From Oscillospiraceae bacterium (GTDB taxonomy: Bacteria > Bacillota > Clostridia > Oscillospirales > Oscillospiraceae): 64,000 nt of DNA. The notes beneath the pieces were generated by a model. That model saw only the letters and a program-made list of their open reading frames with translations. It made no database searches and was not told the DNA's origin. Numbering within the stretch: the first letter of the stretch is position 1; each line of letters starts with the position of its first letter. Positions 45,773 through 60,271 of this stretch are shown here, piece by piece. A program made the position numbers and the translations under genes. The stretch spans positions 62,001-126,000 of the forward strand of contig WRLE01000009.1 of NCBI GenBank assembly GCA_009777775.1, read 5' to 3'.

Positions 45773-47434
45773 TTATTGATTCAATTCCATTGCCACTTCA
45801 CATGATTTTTTATAGAAAGCAATTCCATATCTATATATTTTTGTATAACCTTCATTGGTCAGATTATGGACATAAGCTTTTTCCTTTATCTGCTCTAAGC
45901 CTTTTTCCGCTTCTTCACGCAGGTTTTCTGTCTCACTTTTCAAGTGCTTGAACTCCACTACCACAGCTGCGATGCTTTTATCTTTGGGCTTTATAACACA
46001 ATCAGCTCTTCCCATACCCGATTCCTGATTTGAAAAGACACTGTAGTTACTCGAAGCAGCTAGTATCCCATATATGAACATATGATAGCTGTTCTCGCTG
46101 GTTAAATCGAAATTGCTAGGATTATTTAACAAATCCTCATTTAGGATGTCAGCAACACCTTTAGCATCACCAGAAAACAAATATTTTAAAAATGCTTGTA
46201 TTGCAACAGAAAGCCCTACTCGCTCTTCCCGCAGCCATTCAATTGCATAGCGAGTAAATGTATCTTTTACCTCCATATTCACTAGCTCGGCTTTGAACTC
46301 TCCCCCCTTTGTTTCATCGCAAGGCTTGAGATAGCCGGCATGGAGGAGAAGCGTCCAAAAGGTATTCGAGCTGGCATATTTAATGGGATAAGTGATCTGG
46401 TCAGCAAGTGACATAGAAATGGGTGAATTTGTAAGAAGACCTGCAAGGTCGTCTCTTAATTTATCGTCACCTTTGTGAAACACATCTTGGAGTACTTGCA
46501 TTGAACCAGTATTCACCCAGTAGTTTAAAAACTTTTGTCTGTCAAGGTACATCGTGATGCTCCAGGGGTTATACATATCATGCCCGCCCATCCTGTAGCC
46601 ATCGTACCAACTCTTGATGTCTAAGTATTTATCGCTTATATCGTACATTTCGCAAGCAGCTATAACCTCATCTTCGGTAAATCCAAAGCTGGTGGCATAC
46701 TCTTCATCTAAAACGCCACATACTTTCGGGTTGTTGAAACTGCTGAAAAGACCTTCCTTGGATATCCTCTGAACACCTGTTATCACACCGAATTCTAGGT
46801 GATCGTTCGTCTTAAAAACGCTCCCGAGAAAACCTTGCATGAAACCTATCATTTTATTATAATAGCCATATATTTCAGCATTGTCCAATGGAGCATCATA
46901 TTCATCCAAGAGCACAATCGTCCGTTTCTGATAATATGTATATAAACAAGAGGTCAAAAATTTCAGTGAAGAACGTAGACCTACTTCGCTTGCTTCCATA
47001 GAACAATATTTATGAAAGATTTCCTTTTCGTATGTGCTGAGTTTTTCGCTTTCGCATATGTATAGATACTCGAGATAAACAGTAGAAACCAGTTCTGCTA
47101 TGCTTTCAATAGCTTCTTCGTAAGTTGACATTTCTACATTTTTTAAAGTCATTGAAATAACAGGATACTGGTTCATGTGCTTTTCACAGATTTCGTGATG
47201 TTGTGTGATTGCTAAATCATCAAAGAAGCTTATGCTATTGCGATTGACATCGAAGAAGCTCCGCAGCATACTCATATTCAGCGTTTTCCCAAAACGTCTA
47301 GGCCTCGTTATGAGTGTAACTGCATCTTTATTATCAAGAAGCTCCTTGATAAACAATGTCTTGTCTATATAAAAGCAGTTGTCTTCCATTATTCTTTCAA
47401 AAGACTCAGCACCAATGAATATCTGTTTTTTCAA
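45773..47434 (-). CDS. AAA-ATPase-like protein with PD-(D/E)XK nuclease domain
   Basis: A 553-residue protein of the family that pairs an AAA-like domain (SFERIMEDNCFYIDKTLFI, then Walker A-like TRPRRFGKTLNMSML, Walker B IVLLDEYDAPLD) with a C-terminal PD-(D/E)XK-type region (GRADCVIKPKDKSIAAVVVEFK, where D, E and K are the catalytic residues). These genes are often multicopy in anaerobes; function is unknown, possibly mobile-element or defence related. The start is TTG (47434) after GGAGGT; the first candidate codon at 47449 is also TTG and precedes that site. Confidence 0.88.
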   Translation of the reverse strand: MKKQIFIGAESFERIMEDNCFYIDKTLFIKELLDNKDAVTLITRPRRFGKTLNMSMLRSFFDVNRNSISFFDDLAITQHHEICEKHMNQYPVISMTLKNVEMSTYEEAIESIAELVSTVYLEYLYICESEKLSTYEKEIFHKYCSMEASEVGLRSSLKFLTSCLYTYYQKRTIVLLDEYDAPLDNAEIYGYYNKMIGFMQGFLGSVFKTNDHLEFGVITGVQRISKEGLFSSFNNPKVCGVLDEEYATSFGFTEDEVIAACEMYDISDKYLDIKSWYDGYRMGGHDMYNPWSITMYLDRQKFLNYWVNTGSMQVLQDVFHKGDDKLRDDLAGLLTNSPISMSLADQITYPIKYASSNTFWTLLLHAGYLKPCDETKGGEFKAELVNMEVKDTFTRYAIEWLREERVGLSVAIQAFLKYLFSGDAKGVADILNEDLLNNPSNFDLTSENSYHMFIYGILAASSNYSVFSNQESGMGRADCVIKPKDKSIAAVVVEFKHLKSETENLREEAEKGLEQIKEKAYVHNLTNEGYTKIYRYGIAFYKKSCEVAMELNQ

Positions 47435-47554
47435 AGCAATGACCTCCAAAATAGTCTCCGTTTCGATTATATCACTTCAAAGAGACAAATACCACTATAT
47501 AATATTATATGCTGCGGCCTTGTCAGTTAATCACATGAAAAAAAGAGAAAAGCC

Positions 47555-48668: not shown

Positions 48669-50873
48669 TTAAGGGAATAATGCTTCTTTCAATCCTTCAA
48701 AATCCAAATAATCCTCGATGAATTGTTTTCTAAGTAGGTTTTTTGGTACAAATTCGTTGTATTTTCCGCGTACTTGGATGTTGTCGGGGAGCGGCAGGTC
48801 GTATAGGTTTAAGTCAGATTGCATAATGTCATATATTAGTGCTTCCAATTCCTTGGCAGTACCATCAAATATCACTTCAAGGAAAACCGCACTTATCCAA
48901 GGCAGCTTGCTTTTGATGCCCCTGTGGAGTAACGAATAATGTAGAGTAAAAAGCTGTCTTGTGCCCACCCAGGGGAAGATGGCGAATTTTTTATCTGAAA
49001 GCTGGGTCACCAAATTATCCAGAATGCCGCTACCTGCGGCGATGTAGCGTATTTCCAAAAGTCTATCTTGGCAACGCTCACTAATATAGGGATATTCATC
49101 CTCAGACTCTAAAACACTTCGTATTTTCCTCACTAGAATCGTGTGAAGCTCCACGTCAAAATCAACATCCCAATCAACCAGGGAGATGCCGGGAACGTGC
49201 TTGACGAAAATCACTTTTGCCTTTTCGTTCACATCAATAGTTTCCCAAGCCATACCAGCAAGGGCAAAGCGATACCCAACAGGATATATTTTATCAACCG
49301 TACCAATGGTGCGGTTTTCGTCTTTTACGAGAAGATAATCTGTAGCGATGAATACTGTGAGAAACTTATGGCTATTTACCACCTTTTCTCCAGCTTTTCC
49401 TATAATGAGTCCTCCCCGTTCTGTACGCTCCAGTTGTTCTGTAAATATGAGATAGCTTAGTAGCTCCCTATAATCATCTTGAGATATTTTTTTAAAGCTG
49501 CCAAGAGTCAGAATGGACGATGCCAGCGCAGCAGCGGAAGTTTCTCCATTGCTTTTTAAGTGGCTCATGGTCTGGTGATAAAGCAGGTTATATGGGTGGT
49601 GATGGGGGTAGAGTGGCTCTATCCAATTATCCTTGGTATATAACTCGATTATGGCTATTATTCTGATGAATTCCCAATTGATTGGACCAAGAATATCAGA
49701 AGCATCGACCCGCAGGTTTTCCACGAAAGTGAATAGCAGCTGGGGTATTTGACCTCTTCGCCCACAGCGACCAAGTCTCTGGGCAAAGCTTGATACTGTA
49801 AGGGGTGCGCCCACTTGGACGGCTTGGTCTAAGGAACCGATGTCAATACCCAGTTCCAAGGTGACAGTTGCTCCCGTGACTATCTTTTCGTCCTCGGACT
49901 TCATTTCATCTTCCGTTGTCTCTCTGAGAAGAGCGGATACATTTCCATGATGAACCCTGTAAACATCGGGGGATTTATTTTTTAAGGCAATTTCCCGCAG
50001 GTTTGCCATGATAAATTCGGTTTCTTCCCGGCTGTTGGTGAAAATAATGGTCTTTTTGTCCAGAGTCATTTTATATAAATACTCAAAATGCTCTCGATGA
50101 CCAATATCACCCTCTCCTATGACATTTATCACATTTCCGCTACCATCTCGCTCAACAAAGTCTCGTTTATCTGCGAAATTCACAAAACGCTCCACATGGA
50201 GGCGAACACGCTTTTTACCCTCATCTGATATGGGAGCGGCACAGTTACGTCCTGTACCTGTGTTTAACCAATTTTGCGCCATGGTAACATCACCAAGGGT
50301 GGCGGAAAGCCCGATTCTCCTTGGGATAACACCTGTCAAATTCTGTAGTCTTTCAAGGACGCATAAAAGCTGTACACCCCTGGAGTCTCGCATGAAATGA
50401 TGCACCTCGTCGATAATCACATATCGCAAGTCTGAAAACATTTGAAGGCTGGCTCCCCGCTTGTTGGTGAGTAGACTTTCCAAAGACTCTGGAGTAATTT
50501 GTATCAAGCCCTGGGGTTTTTTGATAAGCTGCTCTTTCTTTGTTTGAGAGGCGTCGCCATGCCATTTTGTTACTGGAATATTGGAGTCCAGGAGTAACAG
50601 CTCCAGCCGCTTAAACTGGTCGTTTATTAATGCCTTAAGGGGAGAAATATACATTACACCCACAGTTTTCGATGGATTATTATACATATCTGTGAGTATG
50701 GGGAGAAAAGCCGCTTCGGTTTTCCCAGAAGCAGTTCCGCTGGAGAGAAGGAGGTTATCGTCGCTATCGAATATAATATCGCAAGCAGCAACCTGAATCC
50801 CACGCAATTCTTCCCATTTGTTTAAATATATGAAATCCTGAATAAAAGGAGCAAGCCTATTAAATACTTCCAT
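48669..50873 (-). CDS. Lhr-like DEVH-box superfamily 2 helicase
   Basis: A 734-residue helicase: Walker A GTASGKTEA (46-54), IIDEVHHF (DEVH at 155-158), SATLGD (motif III), GATVTLELGIDIG, and motif VI QRLGRCGRRG, followed by a C-terminal region of about 340 residues. Helicases of this type occur beside BREX-type ATPases and TerB-domain proteins in Firmicutes. Here those partners are encoded on the same strand 6-11 kb away, separated by surface-protein genes. It is convergent with the CDF gene (17-bp gap). Confidence 0.88.
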   Translation of the reverse strand: MEVFNRLAPFIQDFIYLNKWEELRGIQVAACDIIFDSDDNLLLSSGTASGKTEAAFLPILTDMYNNPSKTVGVMYISPLKALINDQFKRLELLLLDSNIPVTKWHGDASQTKKEQLIKKPQGLIQITPESLESLLTNKRGASLQMFSDLRYVIIDEVHHFMRDSRGVQLLCVLERLQNLTGVIPRRIGLSATLGDVTMAQNWLNTGTGRNCAAPISDEGKKRVRLHVERFVNFADKRDFVERDGSGNVINVIGEGDIGHREHFEYLYKMTLDKKTIIFTNSREETEFIMANLREIALKNKSPDVYRVHHGNVSALLRETTEDEMKSEDEKIVTGATVTLELGIDIGSLDQAVQVGAPLTVSSFAQRLGRCGRRGQIPQLLFTFVENLRVDASDILGPINWEFIRIIAIIELYTKDNWIEPLYPHHHPYNLLYHQTMSHLKSNGETSAAALASSILTLGSFKKISQDDYRELLSYLIFTEQLERTERGGLIIGKAGEKVVNSHKFLTVFIATDYLLVKDENRTIGTVDKIYPVGYRFALAGMAWETIDVNEKAKVIFVKHVPGISLVDWDVDFDVELHTILVRKIRSVLESEDEYPYISERCQDRLLEIRYIAAGSGILDNLVTQLSDKKFAIFPWVGTRQLFTLHYSLLHRGIKSKLPWISAVFLEVIFDGTAKELEALIYDIMQSDLNLYDLPLPDNIQVRGKYNEFVPKNLLRKQFIEDYLDFEGLKEALFP

Positions 50874-51000
50874 TTTCTATTCATCACATCCTGTCGCTTA
50901 ATATATTGGATTAATTGTACACCAAATATATATAAAGGTCAAAAGAATAAGAAAGAGAGCTACAATAATTGGTAAATTGTTTTGATGTCTTTGCATTATC

Positions 51001-51025
51001 AGCCACATCTGATGTGGCTTTTATA
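51001..51025 (+). terminator. Orphan terminator upstream of the surface-protein operon
   Basis: AGCCACATC and GATGTGGCT form a 9-bp stem followed by TTTTAT. No gene on the plus strand ends here, so it may be an attenuator of the following operon or end a small RNA. The rest of the 347-bp gap (50874-51220) is AT-rich and shows nothing else. Confidence 0.65.
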
Positions 51026-51220
51026 TTGCAAAACTTGTAAGAAAATTCATATAATGCTGAATTGTTATTCAAAATTTCCCATTAAAATTAATCGTTTTAC
51101 AAGCAAAATGTTGAAATCATCATTACTAATGTGTAATTAAGGGTTTTCCATAGTTGCTACGAATTAAGCTATAGCAATTAAGAATTGTACACTAGCTAAT
51201 AAAACTGGAGGTAGATTGTC

Positions 51221-53488
51221 TTGAAAACCAGATATGGATTATTAAGAGTTACCTCCATTAGTTTTGTGATTATATTAGTCATATCAATGATAATGCCATA
51301 TATGGCTTTTGCCCATGCTACAGAAAGCAGCTTGATGGGAACGGAATCATCTGGAAATAGCACATCATCTGTGGCATCCGAAACATCTCTAACAGCAGCT
51401 TCCGCGACTTCGCTACCGAGAAGCCGTGGAGTTGGTGCTGATTTTGTAATTGATATAGGCATAGGACCACCGACTATTCCTGGGGTCGTTCCCCATCCCA
51501 CTGGAGCGGGTACGGGATATAGCGTAACAGCAGGACCGAATAGGACTATTGATTTTAATACAGTTGCAAATACCTACACCTATGAAATTACCCAAACAGG
51601 AGGCAGCTCTGGTTTTTGGACAATTAACCTTCCCACAGGAGTAAATACCACAATAATACTGCGTGACATCAATGCAAGTGTCTATATTCATATGAATGGA
51701 AATGCACATCTAAACCTACTACTTGCTGGCGATAATATCATTACTGCGGGATACATTACTGTGAGAGAGTTTGCCAGCATTACAATAGATAGCGCAGATG
51801 TAGCAGGGTCTGAACTTGGCTCTCTCAACATAACTAGCGCACATGGAGGATATGCAGCAATTGGTGGATATTATAATACCAGCTCCACACCCAATTCTTC
51901 CCATAGTGGGAATATCACGATAAATGGTGGCACAATCATAGCAACCCACAATAGCGGACAAACCCCATCGGCAGCAGTCATTGGAGGCGCATATGGAACC
52001 CAAGGCACCATAAATATAAACGGAGGGTACGTTAGCGCAACGGCATTAAATTCCAGCTCAGCAGCTGCAATTGGAGGTGGGCAAGGAGCAAAGGGAACGG
52101 TAAGCATCACAGGAGGAACAGTGGTGGCTACCATAAGCACTGGTGGTAGCAGTGCCCTTCCTGCGTATCGTGGCGGTGCTGCCATTGGCGGAGGTGCTGG
52201 AGGAGGTACACCCACCAGTGGAAATGCCTATGTCTCCATCAGTGGTGGGAAAGTAATTGCATCCGCATATAATGGAGCCGCCATTGGTGGTGGTATGCTT
52301 AGCGCAAATGCTGTTGTGGAAATATTAGCAGGTGAAATAATTGCTTCCACATCGGGTTTGGGAGCGGCAATCGGTGGCGGTGGCGGAACAACAGGAGGAA
52401 GCAATATTATTGTAGGTGCCGTGGATGTGAGCATCAGCGGAGGACATCTGGAGCTGAAAGCATCAAATGGCGCAGCCGTTGGAAATGGAGGATATCAATC
52501 TGGTGCTGTGCCAGTCCACAGTGATGCCTTATCGGGGATTGTTTCCATTACCGGAGGTGAAATAATCGCCGATGTAAACCAAGGCAATGGTATTGGTACT
52601 GGGTGGAACAACAAAGTAATACCGCAATTTCAAATTGATACAGGAGCGGATATTATTGTTTTCGGACGAACACGAACATCCTTTGCAGGTATTTATGCTG
52701 GAGATAATACCTCAAGTTATGGATATGGCATGAATACTGGAGATGCATACTATATAAATCTCGGTTTTCCAGACTCAGGAGCGCAGATGAAAGAAGGAAC
52801 GACACTACTTGTTTTTCCTTATGGAGGGACAGAAAATCCTATTAGGAACATAACTGTACCCTATGATATAGGAATGCTCTCTTTTACCATGGGAGACGGA
52901 GCATATGCACAATATAGTATATTTGCGCAAACTACATCGGGATATATCCAGCTTGCCCATGCCAGCGCTCCACTTCCAAGCCCGCTACCATTGGCGAGTA
53001 ACATTGTGTATAACGATGGCAATATATACACAGTGAATCAAACTTTCAGTTATTACAACAATGGTCATGTCCATGATACATATTTTCGATCTCTACCTGT
53101 GAAAGCTGGTAGTGGATTTGGCTATTATCATTTGGTTACCGAGAGATACATAAATATGTCTGGGAATCCAATTTCTTCTCAAACCATGAAGCTCGTACCT
53201 GTGGGTGGCGCTTATACTAAAAGCATCCTATCCATCCCTGGTTATACATATAAAGGTTATAAATGGGACGGCCTACCCATAGGTGGCGATTATATAGCAG
53301 CCAATCCCACAGGCGAGCTTATATACACAAACAGGCTAATTTATTTTGTTTACGACACTTACCAAGCAGTTCCCACAGGAATAAAGAACAGCGATGGGGA
53401 GCTTGGGTTGTTTACCTTGGCAACCGTATCTCTAACAACAATTGGTCTGCTAGTTTTTAGGTATATAAAAAGGAAAGTGGGTGTATAG
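51221..53488 (+). CDS. Cell-surface protein with glycine-rich beta-helix repeats
   Basis: A 755-residue exported protein. It begins with a TTG supported by GGAGGT, and has a signal peptide (about 1-30, ending AFAHA). Residues 150-480 contain repeats of about 30 residues of the form AAIGGG.G..GTV.ITGGTV.A, expected to form a right-handed beta helix; similar proteins are annotated as carbohydrate-binding. The C-terminus has VPTGI, a hydrophobic helix and a basic tail (KRKVGV), a variant sorting signal. It is first in an operon with two pilin-like genes. Confidence 0.85.
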   Translation: MKTRYGLLRVTSISFVIILVISMIMPYMAFAHATESSLMGTESSGNSTSSVASETSLTAASATSLPRSRGVGADFVIDIGIGPPTIPGVVPHPTGAGTGYSVTAGPNRTIDFNTVANTYTYEITQTGGSSGFWTINLPTGVNTTIILRDINASVYIHMNGNAHLNLLLAGDNIITAGYITVREFASITIDSADVAGSELGSLNITSAHGGYAAIGGYYNTSSTPNSSHSGNITINGGTIIATHNSGQTPSAAVIGGAYGTQGTININGGYVSATALNSSSAAAIGGGQGAKGTVSITGGTVVATISTGGSSALPAYRGGAAIGGGAGGGTPTSGNAYVSISGGKVIASAYNGAAIGGGMLSANAVVEILAGEIIASTSGLGAAIGGGGGTTGGSNIIVGAVDVSISGGHLELKASNGAAVGNGGYQSGAVPVHSDALSGIVSITGGEIIADVNQGNGIGTGWNNKVIPQFQIDTGADIIVFGRTRTSFAGIYAGDNTSSYGYGMNTGDAYYINLGFPDSGAQMKEGTTLLVFPYGGTENPIRNITVPYDIGMLSFTMGDGAYAQYSIFAQTTSGYIQLAHASAPLPSPLPLASNIVYNDGNIYTVNQTFSYYNNGHVHDTYFRSLPVKAGSGFGYYHLVTERYINMSGNPISSQTMKLVPVGGAYTKSILSIPGYTYKGYKWDGLPIGGDYIAANPTGELIYTNRLIYFVYDTYQAVPTGIKNSDGELGLFTLATVSLTTIGLLVFRYIKRKVGV

Positions 53489-53614
53489 GGATGCCGCTTA
53501 CTTAATGATTGTATAAGTATTTTGCGAAGCCTTAGTGTTGGTATTTTAAATAACTGTGCAAGTGCCAATACAAATATTTCAAGCAAGACATCTATAATGC
53601 AAAGGAGCGTTCTA

Positions 53615-54988
53615 ATGAAAAAGAAAAGGGACAATAATCACAAAAAAATCAGCTGTATAGCACTTGCTCTAATAATAGCCATCGGCTTGTTATCACCTGT
53701 GCTGAAGCAATCGGCGAGTGCGTCAAGCTATTCGGTGGGAACAGATGCATTAAACCCAGCACCATCGGCAATCACTAAAATTTTTAAAATGCCAACGGGA
53801 ACAACAACGCCCACCGCAAGCTTTCGATTTATATTTCAGCCAATTGGAATTAATGAACTCACTGACCCTGCGACAATTGCAACGATGCCACCAATTAGTG
53901 ACAAGCTTATAAATTTTTCTGCCGCTGACGATATTTCCGGCTCAGGCGTGTCGATTTTTACCAGTGGCGATGTGAAATCTGTGGTGAAGGAATCGTCTGA
54001 TTTAAGCAGCGACCCCTTGATTGTTTGGCCTGGAGTGGGCGTATACAAGTATTATGTCAGCGAAACACAAGTTAGCCATACCAGCATACCTGGTCTAAGC
54101 ACGATGGAAAATGCTGATGCCGTATACTCCCAGGCAAGATATATTGTGGAATTTTGGGTGGACTTAGACTCCAGTAGTCAGCTTTTTGTGAAGTATGTCA
54201 ATGCCATTACAGTGGCGGGCTTCATTGATGAATACTACCCTGGCGACCCTGGGGGCTCAAAGGTTGACCCAACTCCTGGCGAAGATAGGACAAATCCCTA
54301 TGTCACCATTGAAGATGGATTTTCACAGCTAATATTTACAAATAGGTTTTGGAAAAGCGATGGAACAGGACCTGATACTCCCGATGTAAACGCTCTGGAA
54401 ATTACAAAGAGCATAGATGGCATGGACGATGACCCGCTGAGATTCGACAGATATTTCACCTTTACCATTAAAGTCACTCAACCCAGCCTCATATCAGCAA
54501 CACAAAGCTACAAAGCCTATGTTCTCAATGCCAGCGGAGTGAAAGTCATAAGTAATGATAATTATCCTGGGATTCCAGTGGATGGCTTAATCGAATTTGT
54601 ATCGGGAACTGAAGAGGTGGTAAAGCTAAAGCATGGGGAAAGGCTTGCCTTTGTGGACTTGCATATTGGGTCACGAGTGGAAGTTATGGAAGCTGCCGAT
54701 GCTTTGTATAGACCAAGTTATCAGCGGACCTTTGCAGGTACAAGCGTATTTGTCGGTACTGCAGGAGCTTCATGGGGTTTCCCAAGGGCTGCAACTCCAG
54801 TGGATGCAGCACCCCATTATCTCCCTGAAGGTAATGGAAACAAAGCGAACTTTATAAATACCAGAGTCAATGCAACTCCCACCGGTGTAAAAGTCGATGA
54901 CCTGCCATATGTACTCTTGCTCGGACTTGCACCCACTAGCCTTGCTGGATATATTATCGTGAAAGCACGTAAAAAAACAAGGGACTAG
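53615..54988 (+). CDS. Pilin-like surface protein with FctA/Spy0128-type domains
   Basis: A 457-residue exported protein: signal peptide (about 8-38), then two Ig-like modules of the streptococcal pilin (FctA/Spy0128) type, the first from AITKIFKMPTG to FTNRFWKSDG, the second from LEITKSIDGMDDDPLRF. Such modules form Lys-Asn isopeptide bonds. The C-terminus reads TPTGVKVDD, a hydrophobic helix and KARKKTRD, an atypical sorting signal. I start at 53615 after AAAGGAG; the upstream frame is non-homologous. Confidence 0.83.
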   Translation: MKKKRDNNHKKISCIALALIIAIGLLSPVLKQSASASSYSVGTDALNPAPSAITKIFKMPTGTTTPTASFRFIFQPIGINELTDPATIATMPPISDKLINFSAADDISGSGVSIFTSGDVKSVVKESSDLSSDPLIVWPGVGVYKYYVSETQVSHTSIPGLSTMENADAVYSQARYIVEFWVDLDSSSQLFVKYVNAITVAGFIDEYYPGDPGGSKVDPTPGEDRTNPYVTIEDGFSQLIFTNRFWKSDGTGPDTPDVNALEITKSIDGMDDDPLRFDRYFTFTIKVTQPSLISATQSYKAYVLNASGVKVISNDNYPGIPVDGLIEFVSGTEEVVKLKHGERLAFVDLHIGSRVEVMEAADALYRPSYQRTFAGTSVFVGTAGASWGFPRAATPVDAAPHYLPEGNGNKANFINTRVNATPTGVKVDDLPYVLLLGLAPTSLAGYIIVKARKKTRD

Positions 54989-55061
54989 ACAAGCGAATAT
55001 TATATAGCAGGCTCATGAAATATCCACACTGAGGTTTATTAGCATTAAGGAATGAAGACGA

Positions 55062-55868
55062 ATGTGTAAAAAGCTCGTTATTATTATCATAATAATGTCG
55101 CTGATGGCAATGTTGCCCGTTTCTACAAACGGTGCAAGCAATAGTGTCAGTATTACAGTTGAACAGAGCTACCATGCAATATCGGGTTCATTTCAGGGAG
55201 ATTTTACTTACAGGTTCTATCCTCTTGATTCTGACGCTCCGATGCCATCAGGGAGTACAGCCTCTGCCTACACATTCGTCATATCAGGCAATAAAAGTGT
55301 GATTATTGGTCCTCTCAATTTTGAGAGGGAGGGTATATTTCATTATATTCTTTTTCAATTAATAGAAAACGAAGTCTCGGGGTTAACATATGATCGACAG
55401 GTATATACCATCGAAATTCATGTGGACGCTTCATACAATGCATATATGATTGTCAAGTATAGCACTGGCGAAAAAGCGGATAGAATACTATTTGTCAACA
55501 GCTATAGCGGAGGTGGTGAAACAAATCCACCACCTCCGCAAAGCAGCAGCAATCCGAATACGCCCACAATACCCAGTGTTTCGCCAATTCCGAACCCCTC
55601 ACCTATCCCATCATACATACCGGAGCATCCAGAAACAACAAACCCCTCCCCAGGGGGAGAGGTTTTTGAAGCATCAATAATTAACGACTATGATTTAGAT
55701 GAATCCGATTTACCCAACATAGGAGCCAGTCCAGATAGACAAGCATCCCAACTACCTCAAACAGGAGATAGCAGCAACTTATTAGCCTATTGGCTACTGT
55801 TTTGCCTAGGATTTATCCTCGTAGTAGGTGCTTTGGTACTATTAATATGTAAAGCTGACAATCGGTGA
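55062..55868 (+). CDS. Small FctA-type pilin with LPQTG sorting signal
   Basis: A 268-residue surface protein: signal peptide (about 1-25), one FctA/Spy0128-like domain (about 27-145, with YRFYPLDS, YEIHV-like strands and FVNSY), a proline-rich linker (150-195), and a canonical C-terminal anchor LPQTG, hydrophobic helix and short basic tail. It is the last gene of the three-gene operon and may be the basal or tip pilin. No sortase gene is found in the window. Confidence 0.85.
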   Translation: MCKKLVIIIIIMSLMAMLPVSTNGASNSVSITVEQSYHAISGSFQGDFTYRFYPLDSDAPMPSGSTASAYTFVISGNKSVIIGPLNFEREGIFHYILFQLIENEVSGLTYDRQVYTIEIHVDASYNAYMIVKYSTGEKADRILFVNSYSGGGETNPPPPQSSSNPNTPTIPSVSPIPNPSPIPSYIPEHPETTNPSPGGEVFEASIINDYDLDESDLPNIGASPDRQASQLPQTGDSSNLLAYWLLFCLGFILVVGALVLLICKADNR

Positions 55869-55889
55869 AAAAGACGGGATTTTTTCACC
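55864..55889 (+). terminator. Terminator of the surface-protein operon
   Basis: GGTGAAAAA and TTTTTTCACC pair around GACGGGA. The stem overlaps the stop codon of the last gene. It may act on both strands, because the minus-strand operon also ends nearby. Confidence 0.75.
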
Positions 55890-55903
55890 ATGACTTGTAA
55901 CTA

Positions 55904-56248
55904 TTAATCGAGTTCTACTAAGTAGAGTTCATCCAAGTCGCATTTACCCATAGTTACCATGAGCAAAGCAAATTCATCGTATTCGCTCAAGCCATTGTCT
56001 CGCAGGATTTCTCGTATATTATGTCGCCCTGGTGGACAGATACGCCCTTTTGTCCAGCGCAATACATCCTCGTGAAATAATTCGTATTTTCCCCGTTTAG
56101 CGAAACCTTCAATGGATAATGGTAATTTCTCTGGATTTATATCTTTAAATATCGTCATTGAGAGCTGTGTAGTTTCGCTATCATATGATAAAGTACCCAC
56201 TTGGGTATCTTCCAAGTTACCGTCAATCAATGCGAAATTTCTCAACAT
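55904..56248 (-). CDS. Small partner protein of HipA-like kinase
   Basis: A 114-residue protein, MLRNFALIDGNLEDTQVGTLSYD, with a beta-rich first half and FHEDVLRWTKGRICPPGRHNIREILRDNGL in the second. It overlaps the kinase gene by 26 bp and is co-transcribed. It resembles the small partner often encoded with HipA-like kinases in Firmicutes, and might correspond to the separate N-terminal subdomain of HipA or an antitoxin; I cannot distinguish them. It contains no helix-turn-helix that I can see. Confidence 0.65.
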   Translation of the reverse strand: MLRNFALIDGNLEDTQVGTLSYDSETTQLSMTIFKDINPEKLPLSIEGFAKRGKYELFHEDVLRWTKGRICPPGRHNIREILRDNGLSEYDEFALLMVTMGKCDLDELYLVELD

Positions 56249-57062
56249 TATCCCAACGCCTCCATATTATTTCCCATATCATAATAAAATAACTCTCAGG
56301 CAAGACTCCTTTTAGACCATAAAAGAGTTTTTCCTTATCTGTTTCTTGTAATATTTCAAAAGGTAGTTTCATATTAATTAGTTGCAAATTTTCTTCTAAA
56401 CGCTTTGAACCAATGAAATTATTAACTGGTCGGTCTTCCATAATATTAAATGATTGCAAATCTCTTTCTTCAAAACAGGAACAAAGCAATGACAATCCGT
56501 TGTCAAACAGAGGGGAGAGCTTTTTTATGTCATTTTTTAAAACTTCAAGATTAGCACCATGCCTATCACGGTTTATGATTAAATAGTCAAAGACAAACAT
56601 CATATAAATTTCGCTTGCCCAATTGAATCTAATACAAAGCTCGAATGGCGATTCTGCATCAGAGAGCCTATTATCAAGATAAAAATCCTCAAATGATATT
56701 CGGCTTTCGGTGGTCTTGAAAGACTTTGCCATAAAGACATAAGCCTCATGCTCCTTTTCATCGATTCTCACTAAGCTTCTTCTAAGCTCTCCTGAAGGCA
56801 CATTGAAACCTAGTAATTCGCCAAGCCGTATAGCAATCAGTTCGTTGACGGCTTCATGACCATAAATACCACGATAACTATCATAATTAGATAGCTTCAA
56901 ATAATGCTTTTCGCCATCGAGCATTAAGTCTGTCTTCATAAAAACACCATCGGTGGCAATGCTTCCAGAAGACCTGCTCCAAACAAGCTCACGTATATCC
57001 CAAAGGGGCTCATCTGCAATATTCAATGAAGCATTCCTTTCTCTTTCATTTTCATCAAACAT
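56223..57062 (-). CDS. HipA-like protein kinase
   Basis: A 279-residue kinase of the HipA/CtkA fold: the nucleotide-binding segment YLKLSNYDSYRGIYGHEAV, the catalytic loop NRDRHGAN (Asp166, Asn171) and the metal-binding LFDNG (Asp187). HipA toxins phosphorylate GltX and cause growth arrest; the target here is unknown. It starts 8 bp after the BREX-type ATPase stop and overlaps the next gene, so it is part of the TerB-ATPase operon. It lacks the N-terminal subdomain of full-length HipA (~440 residues). Confidence 0.82.
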   Translation of the reverse strand: MFDENERERNASLNIADEPLWDIRELVWSRSSGSIATDGVFMKTDLMLDGEKHYLKLSNYDSYRGIYGHEAVNELIAIRLGELLGFNVPSGELRRSLVRIDEKEHEAYVFMAKSFKTTESRISFEDFYLDNRLSDAESPFELCIRFNWASEIYMMFVFDYLIINRDRHGANLEVLKNDIKKLSPLFDNGLSLLCSCFEERDLQSFNIMEDRPVNNFIGSKRLEENLQLINMKLPFEILQETDKEKLFYGLKGVLPESYFIMIWEIIWRRWDNVEKFRID

Positions 57063-57070
57063 TATACTGA

Positions 57071-58387
57071 CTAAACTTCAAATTCGGCGAATTCGGCGTG
57101 GATGTCTTCGTCGCTTAGGCCGCCTTTTGCTAGCTCGAAGCTGTTTGAACCTAGGATGTCTTCTACTGTGGTGTGGGGGTTTTGGTGGAGGATTCCCACC
57201 AGCTCGATGAAATCGCGGATTATTTCCCTGGGGGTGATGTGGGACTCGGCACCCACTCGATTGTACTCAACTGTTAAAAAATATAGTAAATCCTCGTGCT
57301 TCATCAAAGGGGAATAATCATAAAGCTGAGCATGGATGTCTCGGAGTTTTTCCACTAGGACATACATTTCCTCTTGGGTGAGCATCTGAAGGCGTATAAT
57401 GGGTGCGGATAAATCCTTTAAATCCTCGGTGGCGAAATGTCCCTCTGCCAAGCGGGAGCGTAGAGCTTCATAACTGAATACACCTTTGTATTTATCTTCG
57501 ATGCATTGGGGAGTCCCACCCATGAGAAAACCGATATGGCGGGCTTTTCCCTGAAGTACATCGTTGTAAATTGTCAGGATTTTTTCGTAGTTATTGTTTC
57601 GACTGATGGAGTTTGGAATTTTGAATATATTTACAAGTTCGTCAACGAGTACCAATAAGCCATTGTAACCAGCACTCACCAGGAATACAGCTAGGATTTT
57701 TAAGAAATCATACCAGTTTTCATCGGAAATGATGAAATTTATGTCTAAATCCGCTTTCGCATCCCTGCGGGTGGTGTATTCGCCACAAAACCAGCGAAGT
57801 ACATTGCTTTTTGTTGCAGCATCGTCCTGACGGTAAGCACGCCAATAGGTGATTATGGCTTTGGCAAAATCAAAGCCATTTACCATGCCTTCAAGGGAAT
57901 CGGTGACGGCGTATATTTGCTTTTCAACTTCCATTTCAAACTCGTGACCCTCCAGATTGCTGGAAGTTTTCACCGAGGATTGTATACCAGATATCCATTT
58001 TTCCAAAACCAGGGGGAGAGCACCGCCATCGGGCTTTGATTTCGTGGAGAGGTTGCGGAGCAGTTCTTTGTAAGTTGCTAGACCTTGACCCTTGGTTCCA
58101 GCAAAACGCCGCTCGGGAGAAAGGTCTGCATCAACAACGGCAAAACCCTTTGCTGTGGCATAATTGCGGATAGTTTGAAGCAAGAAGCTTTTCCCGCTAC
58201 CGTATTTGCCCACGATGAAGCGGAAGGTCGCTCCACCATCGGACACCATTTCTATATCATGTAATATTGCTGATATTTCCTGTGTACGTCCCACGGTGAT
58301 GTATTCTAAGCCCACCCTGGGGACGACACCGCCCTTTAAGGCATTCATGAGGATGTTTGCGATTCTTGCTGGTACTTGCATACTCAT
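57071..58387 (-). CDS. BREX-type ATP-binding protein (DUF2791, BrxD-like)
   Basis: A 438-residue P-loop ATPase: VGRTQEISAIL, Walker A VGKYGSGKSFLL (about 59-70) and Walker B GLLVLVDELVNIF, then a winged-helix-like C-terminal region (ITPREIIRDFIELV). It matches the DUF2791/BREX ATP-binding family, seen in BREX type 2 as BrxD and in TerB-linked clusters. It lies between a TerB-domain gene and a HipA-like kinase. No BREX methylase, PglZ or BrxL is in the window, so this is not a full BREX. Confidence 0.88.
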   Translation of the reverse strand: MSMQVPARIANILMNALKGGVVPRVGLEYITVGRTQEISAILHDIEMVSDGGATFRFIVGKYGSGKSFLLQTIRNYATAKGFAVVDADLSPERRFAGTKGQGLATYKELLRNLSTKSKPDGGALPLVLEKWISGIQSSVKTSSNLEGHEFEMEVEKQIYAVTDSLEGMVNGFDFAKAIITYWRAYRQDDAATKSNVLRWFCGEYTTRRDAKADLDINFIISDENWYDFLKILAVFLVSAGYNGLLVLVDELVNIFKIPNSISRNNNYEKILTIYNDVLQGKARHIGFLMGGTPQCIEDKYKGVFSYEALRSRLAEGHFATEDLKDLSAPIIRLQMLTQEEMYVLVEKLRDIHAQLYDYSPLMKHEDLLYFLTVEYNRVGAESHITPREIIRDFIELVGILHQNPHTTVEDILGSNSFELAKGGLSDEDIHAEFAEFEV

Positions 58388-58486
58388 GTTAAATCTCCTA
58401 ATAAATTACCGCGAGACGAGGTCTATCGTTTCGCTTAATTCTATGCCCCTATGATTTTCTTTATGAATGATATGCCTAGGAAGCTA

Positions 58487-60271
58487 TTAAATGGCATTTG
58501 GAAAAAGCTTTATTATACTTTCTACATATTCGTCAAAAATACTCATGCCATCATCTGTTTCCAATATGCTGTCACCAATGTGGTCAAAGGCTTTTTCGTT
58601 GATACTATCGGCTAGGACTTCCAGCATAATATCGTTTTCCTTGGCATATGTTTTTATATCCGTATCGCCTTTTATTAGTATTGACAAGGTTTCCCGCTCG
58701 AGACCTGTGAGTGCTTTTTCAAAGGAAGTCCAGCCATTTTCTGGGAAGGTTTCCAGCATATCTGCGTCCATTAGCTTGCTATCATCAGATATGTTGGTTT
58801 CCATTTCATTAATTTCAACAGCGGCTGGAAGATTTAGCTCTTGTCCCTTAACAACTAAAGCTATATTATCGTCTTCTGGAACAATGAGTTTTTCCTGTGT
58901 TCCCAAGGCTTCTTGGCGTATGCGATCCAGATTCGATAGGTCAACGTTGACAACTGTGAGATTTTGCATTTTGTGGAAATCCTCCACAGCCTTATCGATG
59001 GTATAAGACAAGCCGATACCCTGCTTATCCAGCTCTTTGAGTTTGTTAAATCCTTCGTAGAAGTATTGCCTATAAACTGCGGTGAGCTTGTTTTTATGTC
59101 CTGTCTGCTTTCTGAGGCAGGCTTCGGTTTTTTTTATGATATATGCAACTAAATCCTTTTGGTGGGAATAATAAATGGGAACACTGGCAGCAAAACGATT
59201 GTTTTTGCGGATATATTCCCCTTGCCCGGGGATAGATATGGAATAATCCTCGTTCCTTTTAAAGTCATAAAAAAGAGCCTGCTTGAAAGGCTGCCATATT
59301 GTGCGACGGCTGGTGGTATATACGAAAAATTCGTCATGATTGAGATTGTTGTTTGCGCAAAGTTTTTTAAGGCTCTTTATAACAGCGTCAAAACAGTCTT
59401 TCATTAGCGTTTCATTGCCTTGGTTATAAAAAAGGGATTTGGTGATGTCGTATCCTGATATGCTGTTCCATAAGTCTAGGCTGTTTTCAATGCTCTCGTC
59501 AAATAGATAGGGGATGGGGAAATATTCGTATAAATCGTGTTCTTTAATGAAATCAGAAAAATTTTGAGACAAATTATAATAAATATGGTAATCTTTGAAC
59601 CAATTTGGTATATAGCTCTTTAGCATTGGAGCAAAATCCATGCAGTTGTACCACACTTTCAGGAGCAGATCCAGACCCTCTTCTGGACCGCTCACACCGA
59701 TGTTGTGTAGTAGCTCGTAAGCATATACGAACATATATGAGACTGATGTGGGGAGGATTTTACCATTTCGAAAATTGCTACGCCATGTGAAGTAAGTGCG
59801 TAATTGCTCATAGCTCATATGTTGATAATAAGGATAGTACATATGAAAAGTTTCATTTTCGGAATAGTTATCTGTAAAATCTGCCATGAATTTCGCTTGT
59901 TTATAAAATAACTCCGCATCACTTTTGGCAAATGGTCTATTCGATGACAAGCTTCGCATTTCGTAAAATTTCAAACGAATTGGGTCTTGGTTTCTAGAGA
60001 TTTTTTCCTCTGGAGGGGTGAGGGAGGTGAAGTATCGAAGGGCAGTATCGTATGTGGATGTTGCTTTTTTACTATTGTCGATTTCCACTTCTGCAAAAAT
60101 ACCATCGGAAAATAAGCTGATATCATTATTGCTATCATCATCGTCTTTGCTGTGTATCGTTTCGTCTTTAGTCACAGTATTAGAGGATAAAGGCTTAGTA
60201 GTAGCAGCTTTATCAACAGAAGGTTCTCTTTTTTTTATTAATTGTGAGAGGTATTTCCTTTGTTCATCCAT
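58487..60271 (-). CDS. TerB-N/TerB-C domain protein
   Basis: A 594-residue protein. After a disordered acidic N-terminus (1-90) comes the TerB-N region with YYPYYQHMSYEQLRTYFTWR, and at the C-terminus a TerB-C-like region (about 510-590) with GWTSFEKALTGLERETLSIL and INEKAFDHIGD. These domains are known from tellurite-resistance-linked stress and DNA-processing clusters, often with a BREX-type ATPase and SF2 helicase. The start at 60271 follows GGTGA; an ATG at 60283 is an alternative. It is first in the four-gene operon. Confidence 0.87.
   Translation of the reverse strand: MDEQRKYLSQLIKKREPSVDKAATTKPLSSNTVTKDETIHSKDDDDSNNDISLFSDGIFAEVEIDNSKKATSTYDTALRYFTSLTPPEEKISRNQDPIRLKFYEMRSLSSNRPFAKSDAELFYKQAKFMADFTDNYSENETFHMYYPYYQHMSYEQLRTYFTWRSNFRNGKILPTSVSYMFVYAYELLHNIGVSGPEEGLDLLLKVWYNCMDFAPMLKSYIPNWFKDYHIYYNLSQNFSDFIKEHDLYEYFPIPYLFDESIENSLDLWNSISGYDITKSLFYNQGNETLMKDCFDAVIKSLKKLCANNNLNHDEFFVYTTSRRTIWQPFKQALFYDFKRNEDYSISIPGQGEYIRKNNRFAASVPIYYSHQKDLVAYIIKKTEACLRKQTGHKNKLTAVYRQYFYEGFNKLKELDKQGIGLSYTIDKAVEDFHKMQNLTVVNVDLSNLDRIRQEALGTQEKLIVPEDDNIALVVKGQELNLPAAVEINEMETNISDDSKLMDADMLETFPENGWTSFEKALTGLERETLSILIKGDTDIKTYAKENDIMLEVLADSINEKAFDHIGDSILETDDGMSIFDEYVESIIKLFPNAI

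What the first reader, a model, noticed from the sequence alone, without database searches (positions are those of the whole stretch)
48669..60271. Split TerB-ATPase-helicase system with a HipA-like kinase in the operon
The minus-strand operon 60271-55904 encodes a TerB-N/TerB-C protein, a BREX-type (DUF2791) ATPase, a HipA-like kinase and a small partner. The spacings are 99 bp, 8 bp and a 26-bp overlap. An Lhr-like helicase, the usual third partner of TerB/ATPase pairs, is on the same strand at 48669-50873, about 5 kb further on, with an oppositely oriented pilin operon between. No BREX methylase, PglZ or BrxL is present. Established: TerB domains and BREX ATPases are linked to stress or phage-defence DNA processing, HipA kinases to growth arrest. 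Inference: this is a defence system in which the kinase is the effector, and it was interrupted by insertion of the surface genes.
Basis: partly seen in the sequence, partly recalled or inferred. Interest (0 to 1): 0.88.

Follow-up and report, generated by a model that had tools for sequence, protein, structure and literature searches.

The report
Split Shango defence genes, unrelated kinase
A gut bacterium carries the three genes of a known anti-phage system, Shango, but its helicase gene has been parted from the other two, and the kinase pair lying between them looks like an ordinary, separately mobile toxin-antitoxin module rather than a piece of the system.

Summary
The genes, coordinates and spacings are right. 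The TerB protein, ATPase and helicase match PADLOC's Shango models (SngA 1.7e-63, SngB 5.6e-180, SngC 3e-216): a known defence system. The kinase and 114-aa partner are a split-HipA pair like the published hipJS toxin-antitoxin organisation. The effector claim fails: no HipA-like kinase was found in 100 other Shango loci fetched (94 distinct; control: 12 of 13 HipA loci detected), and the same kind of pair sits away from Shango in 6 of 6 other near relatives examined, genus-mate G010 included. The split is real and derived: SngC is next to SngB in 69 of 86 testable loci, and Sng genes are parted in several genus-mates without stops inside. A control, ruvAB, is also broken in that clade, so operon erosion there is general. 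New here: SngB and rpoB trees share one nine-genome clade, so Shango has been resident there; SngA changes about three to four times faster than SngB by pN/pS. Shango's mechanism stays unknown. Structure prediction never ran.

The parts
58487..60271 (-). SngA: TerB_N/TerB_C protein of Shango (frame open from 60283)
   Evidence: PADLOC SngA 1.7e-63; Pfam TerB_N 4.7e-31, TerB_C 3.4e-15
57071..58387 (-). SngB: BrxC/D-family ATPase of Shango, Walker A GKYGSGKS at residue 60
   Evidence: PADLOC SngB 5.6e-180 against BrxD 9e-47; PF10923 3.4e-160; motif
48669..50873 (-). SngC: SF2 helicase of Shango, parted from SngB by about 6.2 kb; DEVH at 155, QRLGRCGR at 365
   Evidence: PADLOC SngC 3e-216 against BrxHI/BrxHII 8.9e-116; DExH motif in 80 of 80 SngC rows
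56223..57062 (-). HipA-like kinase without HipA N-terminal domain (HipJ/HipT-like toxin), conserved kinase residues kept
   Evidence: HipA_C 7.6e-8 over cut-off; PDC-M03A 9.5e-13; D166, N171, D187 invariant in the 24 rows of A5, window included; their catalytic role is recalled
55904..56248 (-). HipS-like 114-aa partner (putative antitoxin), 26-bp overlap with the kinase gene
   Evidence: Couple_hipA 0.027 alone, below cut-off; 5 of 9 family members match, best 1.6e-6; hhalign to a HipA N-domain profile 88.5% with A4, 29.8% with A7
51221..55868 (+). three surface/pilin-like genes in opposite orientation between SngC and the kinase pair
   Evidence: DUF7601 1.8e-9, FctA 1.4e-5; the first gene had no match at 0.001
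55864..55889 (.). AT-rich hairpin between the convergent ends of the pilin-like genes and the partner gene (possible shared terminator)
   Evidence: folds at -10.1 and -11.3 kcal/mol, z about -2; place read from the sequence; not among the terminator-like sites listed
50914..50942 (-). promoter-like site just upstream of SngC (weak evidence)
   Evidence: 10 of 12 match, but 45 sites found in the region against 37.1 +/- 6.4 expected

Best explanation
This is a Shango anti-phage system (SngA TerB protein, SngB ATPase, SngC SF2 helicase) whose operon has been taken apart by chromosomal rearrangement, together with an unrelated hipJS-type toxin-antitoxin module lying just downstream of SngB. Shown: family membership by profile, open frames and motifs, low pN/pS of SngB and SngC, independence of the kinase pair from Shango in the other loci examined, frequent parting of Sng genes in this genus. 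Inferred: the three Sng proteins still work together in trans; SngB is an oligomeric ATPase that loads or drives the SngC helicase on phage DNA, and fast-evolving SngA is the recognising or activating subunit. Also inferred: the HipS-like partner covers and blocks the kinase; loss of the partner frees the kinase to phosphorylate a translation factor and stop growth.
For: PADLOC SngA/B/C far above the BREX models. SngA-SngB-SngC contiguous in 50 of 63 testable loci outside the genus. HipA-like kinase in 0 of 100 other Shango loci (94 distinct) with a broad kinase model that found kinases in 12 of 13 HipA-domain control loci (L233 missed) and in L209; L054 was also found but was part of the model. 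Kinase with HipS-like partner directly downstream and no Shango in 6 of 6 other near relatives examined: L053, L054, L055, L090 plasmid, L209 in genus-mate G010, L263 viral contig. hipJS (short kinase, HipS downstream) is described in PMC8262856 (abstract and passages). pN/pS for genome pairs without the window: SngB 0.026-0.095, SngC 0.042-0.121, SngA 0.177-0.275.
Against: The kinase gene starts 8 bp after SngB, so in this one genome it is probably transcribed with SngA-SngB, and a local functional link cannot be excluded. The partner itself misses the Couple_hipA cut-off (15.4 of 22.5 bits), its nearest relative in G010 gave no Pfam match, and one of two profile comparisons was weak (29.8%). 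No structure could be predicted. I have no expression or phage data for these genes. The genomes compared are mostly metagenome assemblies.
Confidence: 0.85

Rival explanations
1. A composite defence system in which the kinase pair is the captured effector of SngA-SngB and the helicase is optional.
For: 8-bp spacing to SngB and common strand; HipA-like kinases with DUF3037 partners do defend against phage (PMC12548924, PMC13092281, passages seen).
Against: 0 of 100 other Shango loci (94 distinct) hold such a kinase in the stretch fetched; pair independent in 6 of 6 other loci examined; SngC is open, conserved and clusters with G014 SngC; genes in the SngB-SngC gap of other genomes are mostly unrelated (HAD, VOC, AlgI-like, NUDIX, GNAT; named by eye), though one gap (G007) holds a DUF3990 gene.
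Confidence: 0.07
2. Shango genes in this gut lineage have been turned to a resident housekeeping (DNA repair or stress) role and no longer serve mainly against phage.
For: SngB in 17 of 19 genus genomes (own included) against 5 of 21 other relatives; the same nine genomes form a clade in rpoB (100/100) and SngB (98/95) trees, and the eight of them with SngC in the SngC tree (91); SngA beside a pyrB-like gene in 6 of those 9; low pN/pS of SngB and SngC.
Against: G003 and G016 lack SngB; G015 and G018 carry SngB and SngC of another lineage, so transfer also happens; SngC distances do not follow rpoB significantly (p 0.075); SngA evolves fast, as expected of an arms race; no functional data.
Confidence: 0.2
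3. The parted genes are decaying remnants.
For: Operon broken, promoter of SngC uncertain.
Against: All frames open, motifs present; SngC end branch 0.19 is ordinary (median 0.17); pN/pS of the window's SngC against G014 0.12.
Confidence: 0.04

Closest known systems
Shango (SngABC)
   Same: All three proteins by profile; TerB, ATPase and helicase as described for Pseudomonas aeruginosa PA14 (PMC10250203, passages)
   Different: SngC lies about 6.2 kb from SngB behind oppositely oriented surface genes and a kinase pair
hipJS toxin-antitoxin organisation (Gerdes et al. 2021, PMC8262856)
   Same: Short HipA-like kinase without N-terminal domain, downstream HipS-like partner
   Different: Not placed on the published kinase tree here; identity with HipJ not tested
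PDC-M03 (PADLOC phage-defence candidate)
   Same: Kinase 9.5e-13 and partner 1.3e-4
   Different: Partner lacks the HIRAN domain seen in L061 and L062
HipAD / DS-6 (HipA kinase + DUF3037)
   Same: HipA-like kinase with a partner gene
   Different: No DUF3037 match of the partner in Pfam
BREX with BrxC/D ATPases and BrxHI
   Same: ATPase family and distant helicase similarity
   Different: Scores far below the Shango models

Membership tests
Shango | SngA TerB-domain protein | tested here: met
   1.7e-63
Shango | SngB ATPase | tested here: met
   5.6e-180
Shango | SngC helicase | tested here: met
   3e-216
Shango | three genes in one contiguous operon | tested here: not met
   SngC parted by about 6.2 kb. 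I treat this as a rearranged member: I take the genes, not their order, to define the family, and the order is lost in 9 of 13 testable genus loci too
Shango | protects against phages | not testable with these tools
   needs experiment
hipJS-type toxin-antitoxin | HipA-like core kinase with conserved kinase residues, no N-terminal domain | tested here: met
   HipA_C over cut-off; residues invariant in A5
hipJS-type toxin-antitoxin | downstream HipS-like partner | tested here: inconclusive
   family matches Couple_hipA (5 of 9, best 1.6e-6; L062 over cut-off) and hhalign 88.5%, but the window protein alone is below cut-off and hhalign of A7 gave 29.8%
hipJS-type toxin-antitoxin | kinase belongs to the HipJ branch of the published tree | not tested
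   published sequences not fetched
hipJS-type toxin-antitoxin | kinase toxic, partner neutralises it | not testable with these tools
   needs experiment
HipBST | HipB DNA-binding gene and order B-S-T | tested here: not met
   kinase comes first, and no DNA-binding domain was found in the neighbouring genes scanned
HipAD | DUF3037 partner | tested here: not met
   only Couple_hipA listed at E up to 10
BREX | PglX methylase, PglZ, BrxL | not tested
   no genome-wide search; none among the ORFs scanned

The most novel reading that the evidence does not exclude
In this gut Oscillospiraceae lineage Shango has become a long-resident chromosomal system, inherited vertically with RpoB-like conservation of SngB and SngC, its genes scattered over the chromosome and working in trans, while SngA alone diversifies quickly as the part that meets the phage.
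Probability: 0.3. Interest if true: 0.5.

Novelty: new member of a known kind. Interest (0 to 1): 0.33.

Why it matters
It removes a tempting but unsupported 'kinase effector' from Shango. It also points to natural genomes in which the three Shango genes are parted, which can be used to ask whether the parts act in trans and which of them meets the phage. The contrast between slow SngB and SngC and fast SngA makes SngA the first candidate for recognition.

Tried and rejected
Kinase as Shango effector: rejected on 0 of 100 Shango loci (94 distinct) and on the independent occurrence of the pair. Partner as DUF3037: no match. First guess that L041 (G014) carries the same pilin genes in the gap: wrong, they read by eye as AlgI-like, AlgX-like and LuxR-type genes. 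Special meaning of Sng dispersal: weakened by the ruvA-ruvB control. There ruvA is missing upstream or on the other strand in 7 of 7 testable members of the nine-genome clade (G007 and G008 are cut by contig ends); in the 10 other genus members ruvA and ruvB are on one strand in order, within 300 nt in 7 and with a gap of about 610-630 nt in G011, G012 and G017. Insertion scars around the pilin-like genes: no convincing repeats. Close relatives of the kinase by single-protein scans of genome contigs and viral contigs: none. PDB by sequence: none for kinase or partner. Structure prediction of partner and kinase: never run, machine busy. SngC against rpoB distances: not significant (Mantel p 0.075). 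Three further plasmid records and three phage records with partial kinase matches were not examined.
Full report
What is there. On the minus strand, in order of transcription, the window holds a TerB_N/TerB_C protein (58487-60271), a BrxC/D-family ATPase (57071-58387), a HipA-like kinase (56223-57062) and a 114-aa protein (55904-56248); then three oppositely oriented surface or pilin-like genes (51221-55868); then a 734-aa DExH helicase on the minus strand (48669-50873). The window lies in contig 9 of a 2.8-Mb assembly. That match is an inference, and 'termite gut' is my recollection of those isolate codes.

What the three genes are. PADLOC scores SngA at 1.7e-63, SngB at 5.6e-180 and SngC at 3e-216, while BREX models are far weaker (BrxD 9e-47, BrxHI/BrxHII 8.9e-116). 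They are therefore Shango, a published three-gene system with modest protection (10-100-fold on plates) against several Pseudomonas phages (PMC10250203, passages) and a helicase that groups with BrxHI, DruE and DpdJ (PMC12278908, passages). The passages seen give no mechanism; a review table lists TerB in Shango with function 'N/A' (PMC10952713, one passage).

What the kinase pair is. The kinase matches HipA_C above its cut-off and keeps the residues D166, N171 and D187, invariant in the 24 rows of A5; it lacks the HipA N-terminal domain. The partner matches that missing domain weakly (Couple_hipA 0.027, below cut-off). Across its family 5 of 9 members match, best 1.6e-6, one (L062) above the cut-off, while the nearest relative (G010) gave no match at 0.1. 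Profile-profile comparison with 10 HipA N-domains gave 88.5% for the 11-row alignment A4 but only 29.8% for the 9-row A7. Gerdes et al. 2021 describe such pairs, short kinase then HipS, as hipJS, and with a HIRAN domain as hipIN (PMC8262856, abstract and passages). I call the window pair hipJS-type, not proven hipJS.

Is the kinase part of Shango? With 20 stretches from 20 of the 21 other genomes with a SngB match (G038, at contig ends, left out) this gives 100 loci, 94 distinct after dropping six that share a contig length with another. A kinase and a partner model found nothing at E 1e-4. A broader kinase model from 24 sequences found nothing at E 1e-3, while it found kinases in 12 of 13 HipA-domain control loci given to it (L233 missed; L237, the fourteenth locus, was not given) and in L209; L054 was found too but is part of the model. 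Limits: the sample is the nearest SngB relatives, several stretches are short, and absence holds only inside the stretches. Conversely, I examined six other near relatives of the kinase: L053, L054, L055, L090 (plasmid), L209 (G010), L263 (viral contig). Each has a partner gene directly downstream, and none has a Sng gene in the stretch (blastp; for L090 by its annotation table only). The 30 wider PDC-M03A loci were held with 1.5 kb flanks and not tested for Shango; a partner was recognised in 6 of those 30. By sequence the kinase is rare: 4 of 295 order genomes, the own one included, at E 1e-8, and 2 of 19 in the genus at E 1e-5. By profile such kinases are common: 70 of 391 class genomes, six matches in the own genome.

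Why the helicase is apart. Among loci with enough flank, SngA is within 300 nt of SngB in 69 of 81 and SngC in 69 of 86. All three are contiguous in 4 of 13 testable genus loci and 50 of 63 others (Fisher p 0.0011); for SngC alone the difference is not significant (9 of 15 against 60 of 71, p 0.067). The window is not in these counts. In G010 the three genes lie on three contigs; in G004 SngA and SngB lie apart and no strong SngC match was found; in G008 SngA lies apart; in G014 SngA lies on another contig and SngC 6 kb from SngB. The matches have no stops inside. SngC of the window is nearest to G014 SngC (support 96), then L091 (95); L091 has the three genes together. The gap genes differ between the window and G014. 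The control against over-reading: ruvA is missing upstream or on the other strand in 7 of 7 testable members of the nine-genome clade below, and in order in the 10 other genus members, three of these with a gap over 600 nt. Gene order is thus eroding there in general.

Inheritance. The rpoB tree has a nine-genome clade (G002, G004-G010, G013; 100/100). The same nine form a clade in the SngB tree (98/95), and the eight with SngC form one in the SngC tree (91, quick method, not a starred branch). Within it pairs such as G007+G008 recur. SngA was found in eight of the nine, in G013 only as a piece at a contig end and in G007 (73% complete) not at all. SngA sits beside a pyrB-like gene (named by eye) in six of the nine (G002, G004, G005, G006, G009, G010), in G004 and G010 without SngB. 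In the window genome the pyrB-like gene is on another contig. Distances: SngB with rpoB r 0.40, p 0.0035, 17 genomes; SngC with rpoB r 0.26, p 0.075, 15 genomes; SngB with SngC r 0.68, p 0.0005. Against pure vertical descent: G015 and G018 carry another lineage in both trees, G003 and G016 have no SngB, and a SngB 82% identical to the window's occurs in Lacrimispora. So residence is well supported in the nine-genome clade, less so for the window genome itself, which lies outside it.

Rates. pN/pS is 0.18-0.45 for SngA and 0.06-0.13 for SngB over the same eight genome pairs, a ratio of 2.7 to 4.0; SngC is 0.04-0.17 over seven pairs; SngB of G007-G008, with no SngA to compare, is 0.026. Most synonymous sites are saturated, so only the order of the three matters. 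SngB and SngC identity to the window (77-85%) is like that of RpoB (79-84%) over the same genomes.

How it may work. Inferred, not shown: SngB ATPase with SngC helicase acts on phage DNA, SngA recognises or triggers. Orientation makes it unlikely that SngC is read from the SngA promoter, since 4.6 kb of opposite genes and a hairpin at 55864-55889 lie between; the promoter-like site before SngC is one of a set barely above chance. The kinase, 8 bp behind SngB, is likely read together with SngA-SngB in this genome.

Not in print? Searches for Shango with HipA (one genome paper listed, not read) and Shango with TerB and vertical (at least two of three terms; listing only) showed nothing on either point. 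Subscription papers such as Millman et al. 2022 (recalled as the E. coli report of Shango) are probably not held, so this is weak.

Noticed in passing
window 45773-47449: Predicted AAA-ATPase with PD-(D/E)XK nuclease domain (AAA-ATPase_like 3.6e-45, PDDEXK_9 7.4e-20) two genes from SngC.
   Followed up: no
L053:8546-9361, L090:9826-10587, L263:5770-6582: HipS-like partners with a long C-terminal part; in L053 it matches DUF2442 and HTH_17, L090 gave no Pfam match, and the viral-contig copy is 94% identical to that of L053. A HipS-DUF2442-HTH antitoxin is not among the organisations named in the passages of PMC8262856 that I saw (DUF2442: 0 occurrences in its text).
   Followed up: partly
L034:3963-4897: A DUF3990 gene (5.9e-48) with small neighbours sits between SngB and SngC in G007; a DUF3990-like gene (by eye) also lies near the kinase pair of G010 (L209:11136-11618).
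   Followed up: partly
L126, L127: Two Defluviitaleaceae assemblies have SngA about 7.3 kb upstream of SngB and no SngC in the stretch held: parted Shango in another family.
   Followed up: no
L243-L261: ruvA missing upstream of ruvB or on the other strand in 7 of 7 testable members of one nine-genome clade of the genus, in order in the 10 other genus members: operon erosion.
   Followed up: yes
own genome contigs 1, 3, 9, 12, 16, 27: Six matches to the PDC-M03A kinase profile in the window's genome: many HipA-like kinases in one genome.
   Followed up: no
L209:12643-15081: 812-aa protein with nSTAND_NTPase5 (2.1e-9) and a SIR2_2 match below cut-off beside the G010 kinase pair, possibly another defence gene.
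   Followed up: no
L176:7055-9283: A second protein in G002 that matches the SngC profile fully (1.4e-216) but is only 38% identical to the window's SngC and has no SngA or SngB match in the 16 kb fetched.
   Followed up: no
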